Part shown: positions 4,943 through 26,316 of the stretch, piece by piece
Position numbering within the stretch: position 1 is the stretch's first letter
Layout: every line of letters starts with the position of its first letter
DNA from: Clostridiales bacterium
Lineage (GTDB): Bacteria > Bacillota > Clostridia > Christensenellales > Borkfalkiaceae
Direction of reading: 5' to 3'
NCBI GenBank assembly: GCA_022508245.1
Contig: JAFLVO010000011.1
Span: 1 to 33,218, forward strand
Length of the DNA stretch: 33,218 nt
Translations under genes and position numbers: made by a program
Notes under the pieces: model-generated
The model's database searches: none
What the model was told of the DNA's origin: nothing
What the model saw: the letters and a program-made list of their open reading frames with translations, nothing else

Positions 4943-5011
4943 GTAATTGTTTTGTACGGGCTAAACGTTAGGTTTGCCCGTAAAACATATCTGTTGGAGT
5001 TGAATAGCCGT

Positions 5012-6091
5012 ATGGCAGATAAAATGATTGAAAAACTTGCCGATATTTACGCGAGATACGGGGAGCTCACAAAGCAAATGAGCGACCCCGCAATCATTTC
5101 GGATACAAAGCTTTGGACGGATACGGCAAAAGCGCAGGCGGAAATTTCGGAAACGGCGTTAAAGTACGCCGAATACGCCGAGTGCGAAAAGCAATTAAAG
5201 GATGCCGAGGAGGCGGAAAAGACAGAGACCGACCCCGAGATGCGGGCAATGTTTTCCGAGGAGGTGTACTCCTGCCGAGAAAAGCTTGCCTCTATTCGTG
5301 AAGAGCTCAAAATACTGCTCCTTCCCAAGGACAAAAACGACGACAGAAACTGTATCGTAGAAATTCGTGGCGGCGCAGGCGGAGAGGAGGCGGCGCTCTT
5401 TGCCTACGAGCTTTACAGAATGTATTTGAACTACTGCGAGAGACACAGACTCAAAGCAGAGATTGTAGATTTAAATCAAACCGAGCTTGGCGGCGTCAAG
5501 GAAGTTGTCTTTAACGTCAGCGGCAAAAACGCCTATAAACAGCTCAAATTCGAGAGCGGAGTTCACCGCGTTCAGCGCGTTCCCGAAACGGAGTCGCAGG
5601 GCAGGGTTCACACCTCCACGGCAACGGTTGCGGTATTGCCCGAAGCCGAGGACGTAGAGGTGGAAATCAAGGACGAGGATATAAGAGTGGACGTATACCG
5701 CTCCTCGGGCGCTGGCGGACAGAAGGTAAACAAGACCGAAACCGCCATCCGTATTACCCACTTCCCCACGGGGCTTGTGGTAACCTGTCAGGACGAGAGA
5801 AGTCAGCTTAAAAACAAGGATAAGGCGTTCAAGGTACTCCGTTCAAGGCTGTACGACTACTACAATTCGCAGAACCGCTCTGCATACGACGAACACAGAA
5901 AATCGCTTGTCGGCACAGGGGACAGAAGCGAGAGAATCAGGACGTATAACTTCCCGCAGGGCAGAGTCACCGACCACAGAATAGGGCTTTCGCAGTACAA
6001 CCTTACGGAATTCATTATGGGCGATATAGACAGTATGGTAGAGGCTTTGACGGTTGCCGACAGAGAGGCTCAGCTCGCGGGGGAAGAGTAA
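5012..6091 (+). CDS. prfA: Peptide chain release factor 1
   Basis: Class I release factor that reads UAA and UAG at the ribosomal A site and triggers peptide release. From the ATG at 5012 the protein has 359 residues, the usual RF1 length. The codon-recognition tripeptide P-E-T lies at 191-193 (RF1-type PxT) and the catalytic GGQ at 235-237 within SSGAGGQKVN, the glutamine that the upstream PrmC would methylate. A GGAG at 4996-4999 sits somewhat far from this start (12 nt). An in-frame TTG at 4952 would add 20 residues unlike RF1, so I rejected it. The gene follows the prmC stop by 69 bp. Confidence 0.96.
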   Translation: MADKMIEKLADIYARYGELTKQMSDPAIISDTKLWTDTAKAQAEISETALKYAEYAECEKQLKDAEEAEKTETDPEMRAMFSEEVYSCREKLASIREELKILLLPKDKNDDRNCIVEIRGGAGGEEAALFAYELYRMYLNYCERHRLKAEIVDLNQTELGGVKEVVFNVSGKNAYKQLKFESGVHRVQRVPETESQGRVHTSTATVAVLPEAEDVEVEIKDEDIRVDVYRSSGAGGQKVNKTETAIRITHFPTGLVVTCQDERSQLKNKDKAFKVLRSRLYDYYNSQNRSAYDEHRKSLVGTGDRSERIRTYNFPQGRVTDHRIGLSQYNLTEFIMGDIDSMVEALTVADREAQLAGEE

Positions 6092-6095
6092 AAGT

Positions 6096-6310
6096 GTTCA
6101 CAAAAATTCAATTTTATTCTGCAAATTGAATTTTTCGTGATTTGGGGAACTAAGTTCCCCTTTGCTCAATATTTAAGGGCACACAATAATAAGATTGCGC
6201 AAATTCCCCTCCACGGAGGCGTAGGCATACGCAAATTGGGTGCGAAAGGGAAAAGCGTGATTTTTCCTTTCGCCGATAAATATCAGAAATTGTGCACAAA
6301 AATTAAAAGC
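6096..6310 (+). repeat. Structured intergenic repeat, copy 1
   Basis: First of three copies of a multi-hairpin element (others at 18332-18568 and 25686-25922, both in the opposite orientation). In order: H1, 6096-6140, a long hairpin with loop TATTCTGC (6115-6122); H2, GGGGAAC/GTTCCCC (6144-6160); H3, TTTGCTCAAT/ATTGCGCAAA (6161-6170, 6194-6203); H4, GCGTA/TACGC (6219-6232); H5, GCGAAAGG/CCTTTCGC with loop containing GCGTGA (about 6238-6273). A degenerate end, GTGCACAAAAATT, follows near 6292. The single-stranded parts ATTCCCCTCCAC and GCAAATTGGGTGCG are conserved in copy 2. It fills the prfA-to-regulator gap and may also terminate prfA transcription. It resembles no repeat family I can name. 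Confidence 0.85.
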
Positions 6311-6329
6311 TGTAAACGGGGGAAAACAT

Positions 6330-16067: not shown

Positions 16068-16370
16068 ATGAGCGACGAAATTCTTGAAAACGAGGACGAA
16101 GTACTTGAAGAAGACGGAGAGGAGATTGTTGAACTTATCGACGATAACGGCAACGTGCTCAAATTCAAGCTGTTGGATGTAACTGAATACAAGGGAGTAA
16201 AATATACCCTTCTACTTGCCGCCGAACCCAACGAGGAAATCGCTGAGGACGAAGTGGTAATTTTCCGCCTGAACGAGGTGGAGGAGGTCTTGGAGCCCAT
16301 CGAGGACGACAAGCTTTTAGAGGAAGTCTTTGAATTTTACCAAAACGAAATAGATGACGACGCAGAATAA
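16068..16370 (+). CDS. DUF1292 acidic protein (YrzB-like)
   Basis: A 100-residue, very acidic small protein of the DUF1292 family, whose function is unknown. The start is the ATG at 16068 with an AAAGGAG site. An earlier in-frame start inside ruvX gives an unlikely extension. The core motif is VELIDDNGNVLKFKLLDVTEYKGVKYTLL shortened by family standards, followed by EVVIFRLNE. Gene order next to ruvX matches that of B. subtilis yrrK-yrzB, which supports the call. A strong terminator follows. Confidence 0.9.
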   Translation: MSDEILENEDEVLEEDGEEIVELIDDNGNVLKFKLLDVTEYKGVKYTLLLAAEPNEEIAEDEVVIFRLNEVEEVLEPIEDDKLLEEVFEFYQNEIDDDAE

Positions 16371-16383
16371 TTTCAAGTAAAAT

Positions 16384-16419
16384 AAAACCGCGGCGGGTAA
16401 CACCCGCCGCGGTTTTTAA
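16384..16419 (+). terminator. Terminator after DUF1292 gene
   Basis: A 14-bp stem AAAACCGCGGCGGG / CCCGCCGCGGTTTT with a five-base loop and trailing T run. Confidence 0.92.
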
Positions 16420-16479
16420 AATGCAAAAACAATTTGCGCAAAGTAGCAAGTTAATTTTGTGAATACGGCTTATATTTGC

Positions 16480-17421: not shown

Positions 17422-18324
17422 ATGGCATTCACAGCACAGGACGTTAAAGATTTGCGCGAAAAGAGCGGCGCAGGCATGCTCGATTGCAAGAAGGCGCTTC
17501 AGGACGCTGACGGCGATATGGAGAAGGCTGCCGAGCTTTTGAGAGAGCGCGGCATTGCAAAGGCTGTCAAAAAGGAAGGCAGAGTTGCTGCAGAGGGCGC
17601 AGTAGGCGCGTTCGTTTGCAAAGAGTGCGGCACGGGCGTTCTTTTGGAAATTAACTGCGAGAGCGATTTCGTTTCCCGCGGCGATAAATTCCACGAAATA
17701 ATCGATACGGTTGCAAAGGTAGTTGCTCAGAACAAGCCCGCAGACGTTGCGGCGCTCGAGGCTTGCAAGCTCGGCGACGGTACCGTTAAAGATTATATCA
17801 CGGCGCAGACGGCTGTTATCGGCGAAAAGATTTCTATCCGCCGCTTTGAAATTTATACAACGAAGGGCAAGCTTGAAACCTATATCCACATGGGCGGCAA
17901 GGTCGGCGTTATGGTCGAGGCTGTTGACTATAAAGACGGCTCGGAAGAAATTTTACACGACGTAGCTCTGCAGATTGCGGCTTCCAAGCCCTATTACGTT
18001 AAAGAGAGCGACGTTCCCGCCGAAGTAATTGAAAAAGAAAAGGAAATTATGCTCGTTCAGATGCAGAACGACCCCAAGAATGCAAGCAAGCCCAAGGAAA
18101 TTCTCGAAAAAATCGTTATGGGCAAGATGGGTAAGTTCTATTCGGAAAACTGCCTTTTAGAACAGCCCTACGTAAAGGACGATACGCAGAAGGTTTCCGC
18201 CGTTATCGGCAACAAGTTCACGGTTGCCCGCTTTGCCCGCTTTGAAATGGGCGAGGGTCTTGAAAAGAAGAGTGAAAATCTTCAGGACGAGGTCGCTAAA
18301 CAAATCGAGTCAATGAAGAAATAA
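17422..18324 (+). CDS. tsf: Elongation factor Ts
   Basis: Nucleotide exchange factor that recycles EF-Tu from GDP to GTP form. The 300 residues begin with the UBA-like domain (VKDLREKSGAGMLDCKKAL), followed by the core contact motif CESDFVSRGDKF, which corresponds to the TDFV loop that opens the EF-Tu nucleotide site. The length is normal. It is co-transcribed with rpsB. In most Firmicutes pyrH comes next; here a structured repeat and thiT intervene and pyrH lies 7 kb away on the other strand. Confidence 0.98.
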   Translation: MAFTAQDVKDLREKSGAGMLDCKKALQDADGDMEKAAELLRERGIAKAVKKEGRVAAEGAVGAFVCKECGTGVLLEINCESDFVSRGDKFHEIIDTVAKVVAQNKPADVAALEACKLGDGTVKDYITAQTAVIGEKISIRRFEIYTTKGKLETYIHMGGKVGVMVEAVDYKDGSEEILHDVALQIAASKPYYVKESDVPAEVIEKEKEIMLVQMQNDPKNASKPKEILEKIVMGKMGKFYSENCLLEQPYVKDDTQKVSAVIGNKFTVARFARFEMGEGLEKKSENLQDEVAKQIESMKK

Positions 18325-18331
18325 TTGAAAC

Positions 18332-18568
18332 TCACGAAAAATGAAAACGCAGAATAGTTTTTAATTTTTGTGAAATAAAAACGCTTTACGGCGCCCCCTA
18401 AAACCACGCTTTTAGGGGGCGCACTCAATTTGCGAAAGCTTTCGCCTCCGTGGAAGTGAATGTCCGCAATTCAGCGTTTGTTTGCCCCCGAATTATTGCG
18501 GGCAGAGAAACATAGTTTCTCAAGTCACGAAAAATTGAAAACGCAGAATAGTTTTTAATTTTTGTGAA
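18332..18568 (-). repeat. Structured intergenic repeat, copy 3
   Basis: Same multi-hairpin element as at 6096 and 25686, read on the minus strand. It has two terminal H1 hairpins in the same orientation (18332-18374 and 18525-18568), each with loop GCAGAATA (18349-18356, 18543-18550). Between them are H5, GCGCCCCCTAAAA/TTTTAGGGGGCGC with loop CCACGC; H4, GCGAAA/TTTCGC (18432-18445); H3, CCGCAAT/ATTGCGG (18464-18470, 18495-18501); and H2, GAGAAAC/GTTTCTC (18505-18521). Almost every stem differs from the other copies by paired changes. It directly follows tsf and probably also ends rpsB-tsf transcription. Confidence 0.85.
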
Positions 18569-18657: not shown

Positions 18658-18680
18658 TTAATTACAAATAAATTTAATAC

Positions 18681-18753
18681 CGTCGTGGGTGCTGTAAAAA
18701 GCTGAGATTATACCATTGGAATCGGCAACGTAATTGTTGAGCGAAAGATGATA
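18681..18753 (+). promoter_or_regulatory. TPP riboswitch (THI element)
   Basis: RNA sensor for thiamine pyrophosphate. The diagnostic GGGTGCTG ... GCTGAGATTATACC segment (pyrimidine-binding arm) is followed by the second arm CAACGTAATTGTTGAGCGAAAGA, which I split as CAAC, GTAATT, GTTG and GCGAAAGA; it has the conserved TAAT loop and GCGnAnGGA-like end. Closing helix P1 can form from GTCGT (18682-18686) and ATGAT (18748-18752). It is followed by an intrinsic terminator and then thiT, which fits ligand-induced transcription termination: high TPP stops expression of the thiamine importer. Confidence 0.88.
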
Positions 18754-18767
18754 AAGAAAAGTTTTCT

Positions 18768-18833: not shown

Positions 18834-20060
18834 ATGGTTTCAAGTCTGCTTTCTTTCGGCACTATGCTGGAAGACACAAAAAGGTACTTTGCCAATTTTG
18901 ACGGTACCTCGAACATTTGCCGCACAATAGCTCTGTGGATTGCCATTGCGCTCGTGCTTGCGTTTGCCGCAACGAAGATTTATTTTGTAGTTCTTGGTAA
19001 AGTATCCAAAAAACACAGCGCTGAGAGCATTGCAAACGCCAACAGCCTTTCTAACGGCGCCTGGCTTGCAATTGCATTGCTCTTTGCGGTGGCACTGATT
19101 ATAACCTTTTCAAGCTGCTATTTTGTTGACGTAGCAAAAGATAAGGACACGCTGTTCCCTATACTTTTTTATCCCTTATTTGTGCTTTCCATCGTGATTG
19201 TCGCAAGCGCAGTGGTAATAGCTATTAAGCCCTTAAAGCTCGTCAAAATAATTTGTTTGGCAGTTTGCGGTGCGGCGCTTGTTGCCGTTCTCGTATGCAT
19301 GGTAATCTACTACGCAAGCGGTGACGCCGGCGAGGCTTGGAGTGATTTAGGGCTCTACATTTCCGCGGTTGTTCTTATTGCCGGTATCGTTGTGCTTGCA
19401 TTCTTCTCGGACAGAAATTATAAGCCCTTTGACTCGCGCTCGTTGGCATTTGCCGCAGTCTGCGTTGCGTTGAGCTTTGCTCTTTCATACGTTCGCGTAT
19501 TCAAAATGCCTATGGGCGGAAGTATTACCTTTGCCTCTATGTTGCCTATTATACTGTACTCGTTTATGTTCGGGACAAGAAAGGGTGTGCTTGCAGGACT
19601 TGTCTGCGGTATTTTGCAGGCGGTGCAGGAGCCTTGGATTCTTCATCCGGCACAGTTCTTACTTGATTATCCCGTAGCTTTTGCGGCGGTGGGACTTGCA
19701 GGTTGCATACGCGGGTTCAACCTTTTCAAAGATAAAATACGCGTTCAGTTTGTGCTTGGCGCGTTGATTGCGTGCGCTTTAAGATTTATAAGCCACTATT
19801 TCTCGGGCGTGTTCGCGTTCGGTGCGTACGGCGCGGGCTATGCGAGCGAGTACGGCATTTCTCTGCTTGCAAACGAATACTTCTATTCGTTCGTATATCA
19901 GTGCCTGTACGTCATTCCCGAATTTATTATAGTAACGGTTGCCGGAATACTGCTTCTAACTTTCGGCAATTTCAGAAAACAGATAGAAAAGTACTCGGAA
20001 ATCAAAACAACCGTTAACACTGAAACGGCGGAAGAGCTTGCAACGGAAAACAAAGAATAA
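18834..20060 (+). CDS. thiT: Thiamine ECF transporter substrate-binding subunit ThiT, N-terminally extended
   Basis: Membrane S-component that binds thiamine and works with a shared energy-coupling module encoded elsewhere. Residues about 199-395 match ThiT: MPMGGSITFASMLPIILYSF, then GTRKGVLAGLVCGILQ, and HPAQFLLDYPVAFAAVGLAG, the segments lining the thiamine pocket. Residues 1-198 are an extra domain with about five predicted membrane helices (near 29-50, 74-96, 105-127, 131-155, 166-188), which normal ThiT (about 190 residues) lacks. The frame is continuous and has a good AAGGAG site before the ATG, so this is a real fusion or extension. The TPP riboswitch upstream independently supports thiamine transport. 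Confidence 0.9.
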   Translation: MVSSLLSFGTMLEDTKRYFANFDGTSNICRTIALWIAIALVLAFAATKIYFVVLGKVSKKHSAESIANANSLSNGAWLAIALLFAVALIITFSSCYFVDVAKDKDTLFPILFYPLFVLSIVIVASAVVIAIKPLKLVKIICLAVCGAALVAVLVCMVIYYASGDAGEAWSDLGLYISAVVLIAGIVVLAFFSDRNYKPFDSRSLAFAAVCVALSFALSYVRVFKMPMGGSITFASMLPIILYSFMFGTRKGVLAGLVCGILQAVQEPWILHPAQFLLDYPVAFAAVGLAGCIRGFNLFKDKIRVQFVLGALIACALRFISHYFSGVFAFGAYGAGYASEYGISLLANEYFYSFVYQCLYVIPEFIIVTVAGILLLTFGNFRKQIEKYSEIKTTVNTETAEELATENKE

Positions 20061-24903: not shown

Positions 24904-25614
24904 TTAATTATTGTCTATAATGGTACCGGATATATCGCCGAATACGGCGCGGATAATAGAGTCCTTTGCGTCAAGTCCGAAGGCGAGGACGGGGATATTA
25001 TTTTCCATGCACATTGTAGCGGCGGTTGTATCCATTGCCTTTATGCCGTTCTTGATAATATCCAAATATTTAATATGCGTGTATTTTTTTGCGTTGGGGT
25101 TAAGCTTGGGGTCGCTGTCGTAGATGCCGTCAACGTTTTTCGCCATCAGAACAACGTCTGCCTGAATTTCGCAGGCGCGCAGGGCAGCGGCCGTGTCGGT
25201 GGAAAAATAGGGGTTGCCCGTACCGCAAGCCATAATCACTACCCTGCCCTTTTCAAAGTGGCGGAGGGTCTTTCTTAAAATATAGGGCTCGGCAACCGAG
25301 GTCATAATAAGCGCCGTCTGAACGCGTGTGGGTATGCCGCGCTGTTCGAGCGCGTCCATCATTGCAAGCGAGTTCATAACGGTGGCAAGCATTCCCATAT
25401 GATCGGCAGTCGTTCTGTCCATCTGCTTGCCTTGACGTCCCCGCCAGAAATTTCCGCCGCCGATTACAAGCCCTACCTGAACGCCCATTTCGTGAATTTT
25501 GTAAATCTGCTCGACTACGCCCGATACGACGTTTTCGTCAAGCCCGTGGCCGCTTTCGCCCGCAAGAGCTTCACCGGAAAGTTTTATAAGAACTCTTTTG
25601 TATTTGGGTTTCAT
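24904..25614 (-). CDS. pyrH: UMP kinase
   Basis: Hexameric bacterial UMP kinase (amino acid kinase fold), converting UMP to UDP for nucleotide and cell-wall precursor synthesis. The 236-residue protein begins MKPKYKRVLIKLSGEALAGE, with GGGNFWRGR and the DHMGMLATVMNSLAM and GTGNPYFSTDTAAALRA segments that mark PyrH. A GGAG site precedes the ATG. First gene of the minus-strand block; normally it follows tsf on the same strand. Confidence 0.97.
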   Translation of the reverse strand: MKPKYKRVLIKLSGEALAGESGHGLDENVVSGVVEQIYKIHEMGVQVGLVIGGGNFWRGRQGKQMDRTTADHMGMLATVMNSLAMMDALEQRGIPTRVQTALIMTSVAEPYILRKTLRHFEKGRVVIMACGTGNPYFSTDTAAALRACEIQADVVLMAKNVDGIYDSDPKLNPNAKKYTHIKYLDIIKNGIKAMDTTAATMCMENNIPVLAFGLDAKDSIIRAVFGDISGTIIDNN

Positions 25615-25642
25615 ATAATCTCCGTATATAAACTTCTATATG

Positions 25643-25671
25643 ATTATATCAAACAAAAAGCTAAATTGCAA
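25643..25671 (-). promoter_or_regulatory. Promoter of pyrH block
   Basis: Minus-strand -35 TTGCAA (25666-25671), a 17-bp spacer and perfect -10 TATAAT (25643-25648), leaving a leader of about 22 nt. Confidence 0.8.
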
Positions 25672-25685
25672 CATAAAAAAAGCCT

Positions 25686-25922
25686 GTTCACAAAAATAGT
25701 CGGTGCAGAATAGAGGCATATTTTTGTGAACTTTTTAAATATTTTATGGCGCAAGGAGGGTTTCCCTCCGCCGGCGCACCCAATTTGCGCATACTTGCGC
25801 CTGAGTGGAGGGGAATTTACGCGATTTAATAATTGTTTGCACTTAATAATCGCGTAAAGGGGAACTTAGTTCCCCAAATCACGAAAAATTCAATTCGCAG
25901 AATAGAATTAAATTTTTGTGAA
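25686..25922 (-). repeat. Structured intergenic repeat, copy 2
   Basis: Full-length copy of the element, read on the minus strand. H1 25879-25922 has loop GCAGAATA (25897-25904). H2 is GGGGAAC/GTTCCCC (25859-25875), H3 TTTACGCGATT/AATCGCGTAAA (25816-25826, 25848-25858), H4 GCGCA/TGCGC (25787-25800) and H5 GGAGGG/CCCTCC within an outer GGCGC/GCGCC stem (about 25748-25777). A second H1-like hairpin, 25686-25731, has the same loop at 25705-25712 and an outer stem GTTCACAAAAATA / TATTTTTGTGAAC. It lies between the pyrH promoter and the terminator of the small RNA gene. Confidence 0.87.
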
Positions 25923-25925
25923 TAT

Positions 25926-25953
25926 AAACAAAACCCCGCGCAACCGCACGGGG
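25926..25953 (-). terminator. Terminator of the structured small RNA
   Basis: Minus-strand 8-bp stem CCCCGTGC / GCGCGGGG (one T-G pair) with GGTT loop, then TTTTGTTT. Confidence 0.85.
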
Positions 25954-26316
25954 TAATATATTATGTATTTAGTTGTGGTTTCGAGGTCGCCTCCTCACGG
26001 TGCTTTAAAAGGCACATCGGTTCAAAAACCACTCGGCAATCTGCCGCAAACTTATAACCGTGTTTGGAATTAAACCTCATCTGTAAACTTGTACATTGGA
26101 GTTTACCATCCTTTATCTTTAATCGTGTAGGTGTAAAGATTTCCCATTGGACTTTACCTCCTCAACACATTAAATTTTTTCCCTTATCAGATAGAGTCGG
26201 CTAAATTCAACTCAAATAAATTAAACCTTGACCCGCTCTCGCGGCTACGTATCCTTCATTGGAACACCTCAATAATGTTGCGCGCTAACATTTTTTGAAA
26301 GTTTCTTTCTTTTTGT
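25934..26316 (-). ncRNA. Structured small RNA with three hairpin/micro-ORF units, class unknown
   Basis: An independent transcription unit of about 385 nt with consensus promoter and terminator. The 5' part contains three related hairpins in which TCCAATG follows the left stem arm: GTGT/ATAC (loop at 26257-26263), GTAAAG/CTTTAC (26145-26151) and GTAAAC/GTTTAC (26094-26100). Each ATG opens a tiny frame behind a purine-rich site: MKDT (26245-26259), MGNLYTYTIKDKGW (26103-26147) and MYKFTDEV (26070-26096). Between them are CCGC-GAGA-GCGG and other stems. The 3' part has CGGCA-GAT-TGCCG and a three-way junction closed by GTGGTTT/AAACCAC. I do not recognise it as tmRNA, RNase P RNA, 6S or SRP RNA. 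It may be a regulatory RNA, a sponge for an RNA-binding protein, or a micro-peptide message. Confidence 0.72.

What the first reader, a model, noticed from the sequence alone, without database searches (positions are those of the whole stretch)
25686..25922. Three-copy intergenic element with compensatory changes in four or five hairpins
Copies at 6096-6310 (+), 18332-18568 (-) and 25686-25922 (-) align through their single-stranded joints, yet their stems differ by paired changes. H2: GGGGAAC/GTTCCCC in two copies versus GAGAAAC/GTTTCTC in the third. H4: GCGTA/TACGC, GCGCA/TGCGC, GCGAA/TTCGC. H3: TTTGCTCAAT/ATTGCGCAAA, TTTACGCG/CGCGTAAA, CCGCAAT/ATTGCGG. H5: GCGAAAGG/CCTTTCGC, GGAGGG/CCCTCC, GCGCCCCCTAAAA with its complement. 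So many paired substitutions in only three copies mean that the folded form is selected, as an RNA or as single-stranded DNA. It could be a multi-copy structured RNA family, a mobile element moved by a trans-acting transposase or recombinase, or a nucleoid/RNA-processing site. I know of no described family with this architecture.
Basis: seen in the sequence. Interest (0 to 1): 0.88.

Follow-up and report, generated by a model that had tools for sequence, protein, structure and literature searches.

The report
Five-hairpin mobile DNA repeat family
A gut bacterium of the Clostridia carries dozens of copies of a 180- to 240-base DNA element whose hairpins are kept by matching changes on both arms, which moves between sites and tends to sit right after the ends of genes; it matched no family that we searched, and the enzyme that moves it is unknown.

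Summary
The three window copies belong to a family of 62 matches in the 1.66-Mb genome, found in 34 of 37 sampled genomes of the genus. In an order-wide sample (6 candidates scored per genome) it appears only in the own family: 24 of 34 genomes, 0 of 362 others. Covariation is overwhelming: 36 of 49 pairs change on both sides, 0 of 500 shuffles reach the score. In H1-H4, G-U (0.8%) is no commoner than A-C (2.1%), while RNase P of the genus shows 9.0% and 0.6%: the pairing is kept in DNA, not as a sense-strand RNA. It is mobile: a sister species lacks the copy after tsf, and one copy splits a gene's 3' end. At some shared sites copies are swapped or mosaic. The left end lies within 9 nt of a sense stop codon in 29 of 33 testable copies, 9.0 expected. 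It works like REP elements, but this genome has no Y1 transposase and no Rfam family matches. Best reading: a new composite, REP-like, non-autonomous mobile DNA family; mobiliser unknown.

The parts
25686..25922 (-). copy 3 of the element, whole, including the right-hand repeat of H1 (model core 25745-25923)
25879..25922 (-). copy 3, H1: TTCACAAAAAT...loop TATTCTGC...ATTTTTCGTGA, with an unpaired C in the 3' arm
   Evidence: covariation
25859..25875 (-). copy 3, H2: GGGGAAC/GTTCCCC
25816..25858 (-). copy 3, H3: TTTACGCGAT/ATCGCGTAAA around the conserved loop AAGTGCAAAC
25787..25800 (-). copy 3, H4: GCGCA/TGCGC
25748..25777 (-). copy 3, H5
25687..25730 (-). copy 3, right-hand repeat of H1 (sixth hairpin), with a different stem from the left H1
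18332..18568 (-). copy 2, whole, between tsf (EF-Ts, 17422-18324 +) and a putative TPP riboswitch; absent at this place in the sister species G035
18525..18568 (-). copy 2, H1
18332..18374 (-). copy 2, right-hand repeat of H1, nearly the same stem as its left H1
6096..6311 (+). copy 1; starts 5 nt after the stop codon of a peptide-chain release factor gene (4952-6091 +, PCRF and RF-1 domains); right-hand H1 only a remnant (6292-6311)
6097..6140 (+). copy 1, H1
6144..6160 (+). copy 1, H2
6161..6203 (+). copy 1, H3
6219..6232 (+). copy 1, H4: GCGTA/TACGC
6242..6273 (+). copy 1, H5: GCGAAAGG/CCTTTCGC

Best explanation
It is a non-coding, non-autonomous mobile DNA element of about 183 bp: five hairpins joined by conserved single strands, in some copies followed by a second H1. 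Shown: the family spans several genera and in the samples is restricted to one bacterial family; stems are free to change but stay complementary; the pairing in H1-H4 shows no RNA-strand bias; copies are gained, and one lies inside a coding end; some resident copies are swapped or recombined; the H1 end sits just after sense stop codons. Inferred: the folded single DNA strand is what a trans-acting enzyme recognises (H1 as left end, H5 plus tail as right end), so a copy that can no longer fold is not copied. Tandem units about 191-193 bp apart and the repeated H1 would fit a circular or concatemeric intermediate. After landing, copies exchange hairpins by gene conversion. Copies in sense right after a stop codon would put H1 into the mRNA there and probably tune termination or decay of the upstream gene, as described for REPs.
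For: Covariation: 36 of 49 pairs change on both sides, 94.6% of cells paired against 76.3% in shuffles, score 0.477 against 0.144, 0 of 500 shuffles for each. DNA rather than RNA: H1-H4 G-U 10 and A-C 26 of 1256 cells; RNase P of the same genus 267 and 17 of 2967, Fisher p 5e-19; counting only departures from each pair's commonest type, 10 and 17 against 81 and 17, p 9e-6; genus-level element 12 and 12 of 876. Swapping: of 15 shared sites, 4 carry a different element and 3 a mosaic. Placement: 29 of 33 against 9.0 expected.
Against: No mobilising enzyme was found. Y1 is absent from this genome and present in 18 of 61 genus genomes; of the 9 genus genomes with 25 or more scored matches only one (G028) has it, and genomes with Y1 have fewer matches, not more (median 3 against 15). 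No target motif beyond GT at the left foot; target-site duplication unresolved. No orientation link to local GC skew (p 0.78), which lagging-strand transposition might predict. The sense-stop placement suggests an mRNA-level effect, in tension with a purely DNA-level role. H5 shows more G-U than A-C (122 and 27), partly from an asymmetric internal loop of one subfamily. One of the five covariation measures, the number of further pair types, is only slightly above shuffles (76 against 70.7, 28 of 500). Swapping of whole hairpins could keep pairing without selection on each copy. Most shared sites (11 of 15) do not carry a wholly different element.
Confidence: 0.7

Rival explanations
1. It is a structured RNA family (sRNA, 3' UTR element or riboswitch-like) in many copies, with selection on the RNA fold.
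For: Strong covariation, low folding energy, left end right after sense stop codons, conserved loops and joints, G-U above A-C in H5.
Against: G-U is no commoner than A-C in H1-H4, unlike RNase P from the same genus. Splitting own-genome copies by neighbour-gene direction shows no G-U excess in sense copies: 2 G-U and 8 A-C in 16 copies with a sense upstream gene (small numbers). Copies lie in both orientations to neighbours, some differ at the same site between sister species, and no Rfam family matches.
Confidence: 0.12
2. It is a host-functional DNA site (nucleoid, gyrase or termination site, like some E. coli BIMEs) kept for its function and spread mainly by gene conversion and duplication, with little true transposition.
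For: Copies are swapped or mosaic at 7 of 15 shared sites; five shared copies are nearly unchanged (7 of 920 differences against 134 of 2944 in flanks, but these pairs were chosen because they were near-identical; a sixth pair in that call differs at 25 of 172); present in three genera of the family.
Against: Matches per genome run from 0 to at least 43 within one genus, empty sites and an insertion in a coding end exist, and orientation does not follow local GC skew.
Confidence: 0.15
3. A special case of the best reading: it is a remnant or satellite of an IS200/IS605-type or REPtron system whose Y1 transposase has been lost or acts only at times.
For: Hairpins near both ends, DNA-level structure, an unpaired base in the H1 stem, no coding capacity noticed; Y1 genes occur in 18 of 61 genus genomes, among them G028 with 29 scored matches.
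Against: No Y1 in the own genome nor in 8 of the 9 genus genomes with 25 or more scored matches; genomes with Y1 have fewer matches; no GTAG or CGTC tag at the foot of H1; much larger than a REP.
Confidence: 0.12
4. Another special case: it moves by site-specific recombination between H1 sites, as folded single strands in the manner of attC, or via Xer-type recombinases, giving circles and tandem arrays.
For: A start of H1 with up to 2 mismatches recurs on the right in 22 of 75 copies against 4 in an upstream control stretch; tandem units; two tyrosine recombinases in the genome.
Against: Two tyrosine recombinases are the ordinary Xer complement (recalled); H1 does not begin with the attC core GTTRRRY (core recalled); H1 stems differ between copies.
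Confidence: 0.1

Closest known systems
REP / BIME / REPIN elements with TnpA-REP (RAYT) transposases
   Same: Multi-copy intergenic palindromes that form hairpins, mobile, persisting across related genomes, singly or in clusters, part of them just after stop codons (passages of PMC12306157, PMC6006769, PMC8049555).
   Different: Five different hairpins in one 183-bp unit instead of a 21-65-nt REP or an inverted pair; no GTAG/CGTC tag; no Y1 gene in this genome; arrays are head to tail.
IS200/IS605 ends and their non-autonomous derivatives
   Same: Hairpins near both ends; in that family the transposase recognises subterminal secondary structures of single-stranded DNA (PMC6006769, passages).
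   Different: No Y1 and no TnpB-type domain in the genome; no insertion motif seen at the left foot.
Enterobacterial RU-1/RU-2/RU-3, ERIC, BOX, NEMIS (small intergenic repeats or MITEs)
   Same: 100-250-bp mobile intergenic units (RU: abstract start of PMC2759123 in the listing; the others recalled).
   Different: No sequence relation tested; multi-hairpin covariation with freely varying stems is, from memory, not their hallmark.
attC sites of integrons
   Same: Sequence-variable, structure-conserved folded single-strand DNA recombination sites with unpaired bases (recalled).
   Different: No gene cassette seen between tandem copies, no attC core at the left foot, five hairpins; integron integrase not specifically tested.
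HEARO / omega RNAs
   Same: Repeated, about 200 nt, several stems (recalled).
   Different: Rfam scan negative at gathering score, no TnpB-type domain PF07282 in the genome, pairing lacks RNA strand bias.

Membership tests
REP/REPIN-RAYT | high-copy palindromic intergenic DNA hairpins | tested here: met
   62 matches, covariation, no RNA-strand bias in H1-H4; 35 of 47 own copies overlap no ORF of 70 aa or more
REP/REPIN-RAYT | GTAG or CGTC tetranucleotide at the foot of the hairpin | tested here: not met
   left-foot column counts give GT before TCAC and no tag; tags per title and abstract start of PMC3733652 (listing)
REP/REPIN-RAYT | Y1 (PF01797) transposase in the genome | tested here: not met
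   0 in own genome, 97.6% complete; 18 of 61 in the genus; 1 of 9 genomes with 25 or more scored matches (G028)
REP/REPIN-RAYT | frequent location within 15 nt of a stop codon | tested here: met
   29 of 33 within 9 nt, 9.0 expected; REP fact from passages of PMC12306157
IS200/IS605 derivative | Y1 TnpA or TnpB present | tested here: not met
IS200/IS605 derivative | insertion 3' of a fixed short motif, no target duplication | tested here: inconclusive
   AT-rich left flank, no motif; exact target not resolved
structured RNA family | covariation tolerant of G-U on the transcribed strand | tested here: not met
   H1-H4 G-U 10 and A-C 26; RNase P control 267 and 17; H5 goes the other way
structured RNA family | match to a known Rfam family | tested here: not met
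   no match at gathering score; best permissive match in window 25600-26000 is 23.4 bits against 50
DDE-type MITE | terminal inverted repeats and fixed target-site duplication | tested here: inconclusive
   H1 is itself an inverted repeat and its start recurs at the right in 22 of 75 copies; possible AAC duplication at the tsf site only
HEARO / omega RNA | IscB/TnpB partner or Rfam match | tested here: not met
   PF07282 0 in own genome; Rfam negative; IscB itself not searched
attC | integron integrase and attC core sequences | not tested
   only the general tyrosine recombinase family was counted: 2
retroelement | reverse transcriptase in the genome | tested here: not met
   PF00078 0 in own genome

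The most novel reading that the evidence does not exclude
A new class of mobile DNA that transposes as a five-hairpin folded single strand, moved by an enzyme other than the Y1 transposases known for hairpin elements, and delivered in one orientation to the few bases after stop codons.
Probability: 0.25. Interest if true: 0.88.

Novelty: new variant of a known kind. Interest (0 to 1): 0.66.

Why it matters
Covariation is usually read as a sign of RNA structure. This family shows strong covariation with, in four of its five hairpins, no RNA-strand bias, so it is a worked example of DNA-level structure conservation and a warning for RNA discovery pipelines, with a simple control (G-U against A-C beside RNase P). 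It is also a population of about 60 mobile elements in a 1.66-Mb genome without the Y1 transposase known for such hairpin elements, so the mobilising enzyme can be sought by comparing low-copy and high-copy species of one genus. Its bias for sense stop codons offers what may be an independent case of the REP-like link between hairpins and translation termination.

Tried and rejected
Y1 transposase as present mobiliser: absent from the own genome; in the genus it goes with fewer matches, though G028 has both. TnpB-type domain, reverse transcriptase: absent. Phage or plasmid carriage: no match; 0 exact pattern hits in viral contigs. Physical contact between H2 and the ATTCMCTTCC joint suggested by mutual information: read instead as subfamily linkage, because H2, one H3 pair and the joint vary together as two types. 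Autonomous version with a gene between H1 and H4-H5: none recognised in 1.52 Mb held (with overlaps), but my H1 finder flagged 75 of 207 halves as lacking H1, many wrongly, so this is weak. Orientation against local GC skew: none; a post hoc split of contig C1 (p 0.005, same call) I treat as chance. Slow evolution of unswapped copies is not used as proof, since I picked near-identical pairs. tRNA control: only 7 tRNAs (parsing failed). One pair used the wrong window copy and was redone. In one search two panels (L014, L011) aligned badly and were not used; the tsf site is read. A sixth short-gap site (L205:2772) proved to be an internal deletion in the G035 copy, not an empty site. Paper searches for a description listed none of this family; of papers I saw listings, and passages of PMC12306157, PMC2864571, PMC6006769 and PMC8049555.

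Full report
WHAT IS THERE. The unit is GTTCAC-H1-TTT-H2-H3-ATTC(M)CTTCC..-H4-AAATTGAGTGCG-H5-tail. H1 has a conserved loop TATTCTGC in this species and an unpaired C in its 3' arm.

HOW MANY. The H1 pattern (up to 2 mismatches) occurs 46 times in the genome, 0 for the reversed pattern. A covariance model from 34 full copies (A2; copies with nested inserts, truncations or an altered H4 left out) finds 62 matches at E <= 1e-3, partial copies included (150 of 906 candidates scored). In 61 genomes (own plus 60 relatives) it is present in 34, all of the own genus (34 of 37; none in G008, G012, G025), and in 0 of 24 genomes of other families. In an order-wide sample it occurs in 24 of 396 genomes, all in the own family (24 of the 34 listed), 0 of 362 elsewhere. 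In a class-wide sample, partly the same genomes, it occurs in 4 of 391, all in the own family. These wide scans score only 6 candidates per genome, so absence is approximate. An exact pattern in named GTDB genomes gave 67 stretches, all titled Clostridia or Clostridiales MAGs, Candidatus Coproplasma stercoravium or Candidatus Gallimonas gallistercoris. G035 matches MAG HAN108 by its contig lengths (inference).

STRUCTURE IS CONSERVED. In A2 36 of 49 pairs show changes on both sides; 94.6% of cells pair (76.3% shuffled); the covariation score is 0.477 (0.144 shuffled); 0 of 500 shuffles reach any of these, though a fifth measure, further pair types, is only slightly raised (76 against 70.7; 28 of 500). 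Sliding the partner by 1-3 columns lowers pairing to 34-51%. In one H4 pair all four Watson-Crick types occur in 34 copies without a mismatch. Distant members (15 inspected by eye) mostly keep H1 and a recognisable H4-H5 part with unrelated stems and a variable middle.

DNA, NOT RNA. RNA selection tolerates G-U but not A-C, and the bias flips on the other strand. With one pipeline (MAFFT plus RNAalifold), H1-H4 of the element have G-U 10 (0.8%) and A-C 26 (2.1%) of 1256 cells; RNase P from 28 genomes of the same genus has G-U 267 (9.0%) and A-C 17 (0.6%) of 2967 (Fisher p 5e-19). Counting only departures from each pair's commonest type, so that fixed G-U pairs of RNase P do not count, it is 10 and 17 against 81 and 17 (p 9e-6). 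A genus-level MAFFT set of 24 copies (5 of 29 dropped for length; H5 not in its structure) has 12 and 12 of 876, and the model-fitted set of 111 unique copies has 52 and 41 in H1-H4 (sums over four helices). Seven tRNAs have 13 and 0. H5 goes the other way (G-U 122, A-C 27 in the 111 copies; 25 and 14 in A2), partly because an asymmetric internal loop of one subfamily is counted as pairs (my reading). I conclude that pairing in H1-H4 is maintained in DNA; cells count copies, which are related, so the p-values are optimistic.

IT MOVES. Sister species G035 (EF-Ts 97% identical) has no element after tsf, where the window has copy 2; of 30 tsf loci read, only the own one and that of G083 have a copy directly behind tsf. 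Four further sites look occupied in one species only (alignments for three of them). One G035 copy splits the end of a gene: the G000 protein ends ...KKTADGDGEPKKAPAKKTTAKKS, the G035 protein ends ...KKTTTKKAQ, and codons for the old tail lie beyond the element (tail read by eye). Of 15 sites occupied in both species, 5 carry near-identical copies, 4 a different element (one is window copy 1, about 71% identical), 3 a mosaic (the H1 stem, H1-H3, or from the H3 3' arm to H5 exchanged), and 3 are diverged, deleted or truncated. Copies also occur head to tail, in the clearest cases 191-193 bp apart. A right-hand H1 start (up to 2 mismatches) is seen in 22 of 75 copies, 4 in a control stretch.

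WHERE IT LANDS. With a simple ORF caller on 47 own and 28 G035 copies, 43 had a sense upstream gene; 33 of these had both neighbours, no overlapping ORF and an upstream distance up to 400 nt (10 dropped). In 29 of 33 the left end was at most 9 nt past the stop codon or overlapped it; uniform placement in the intergenic gap predicts 9.0 (0 of 200000 simulations). Each species alone shows it (18 of 21, 4.7 expected; 11 of 12, 4.3 expected); some sites are shared, so the two are not independent. The right end shows no such excess at convergent stops (8 of 29, 5.8 expected), nor the left end at divergent starts (5 of 22, 4.3 expected). The flank has no motif beyond GT at the foot, and orientation does not follow local GC skew (53 copies, p 0.78).

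MECHANISM. Shown: DNA-level hairpins, gain at new sites, exchange between copies, end-specific placement at sense stops. [quoted passage not shown] I recall it as Liang et al. 2015). The enzyme is not identified: Y1, TnpB-type and reverse transcriptase domains are absent from the genome and only two tyrosine recombinases are present; DDE, IS91-type and other enzymes were not searched. Across 37 genus genomes Y1 goes with fewer matches (median 3 with, 15 without; p 0.01), but one high-copy genome, G028, has it.

COMPARISON. It works like REP/REPIN elements but fails two of their defining tests (tag, Y1 in the genome), so I do not file it there. Rfam has nothing at gathering score (permissive scan gives only weak matches), nor do the phage and plasmid collections. 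Weinberg et al. discuss a motif that might act as single-stranded DNA (STAXI, passages of PMC2864571), so the idea has precedent. Four paper searches listed no description of this family; only open PMC papers were searchable.

VERDICT. A real, abundant, apparently family-restricted, mobile multi-hairpin DNA repeat; new as a family as far as these searches go, and unusual in its DNA-level covariation; mobiliser unknown.

Noticed in passing
window 18675-18763 (+): Divergent TPP riboswitch (33.7 bits, below the gathering score 54.3, E 3.6e-5) upstream of a thiamine transporter gene (Thia_YuaJ, 18834-20060 +); the sister species has nearly the same sequence there.
   Followed up: partly
L001, L003, L008, L019, L026, L032, L193, L199 and others (own genome): A second repeat of about 62 bp (GCGAGCGNAGCG...TTTGCACACCTTATTGTAAAA...GTGCAAA) is nested in H4 of several copies, and in inverted orientation in H3 of one (L001): a hairpin repeat nested inside hairpins.
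   Followed up: partly
window 16359-16464 (-): Weak model match (20.7 bits, E 9e-4, L213:438-543) containing TATTCTGC: probably a decayed copy.
   Followed up: no
window 526, 4773, 32943, 33093: Four further TATTCTGC motifs outside the three copies and the 16.36-kb remnant; chance predicts about 1.1 in the whole window.
   Followed up: no
A2 columns 124 and 129: A covarying pair flanks four bases just before H4 (C-G 23, G-C 8, wobble 3 of 34): a possible one-pair mini-loop or tertiary contact.
   Followed up: no
L217:2407-2586 (G083): A copy sits within a few bases of the tsf stop codon in another species, on the opposite strand to the window's copy, so the same gene end was apparently hit twice.
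   Followed up: no
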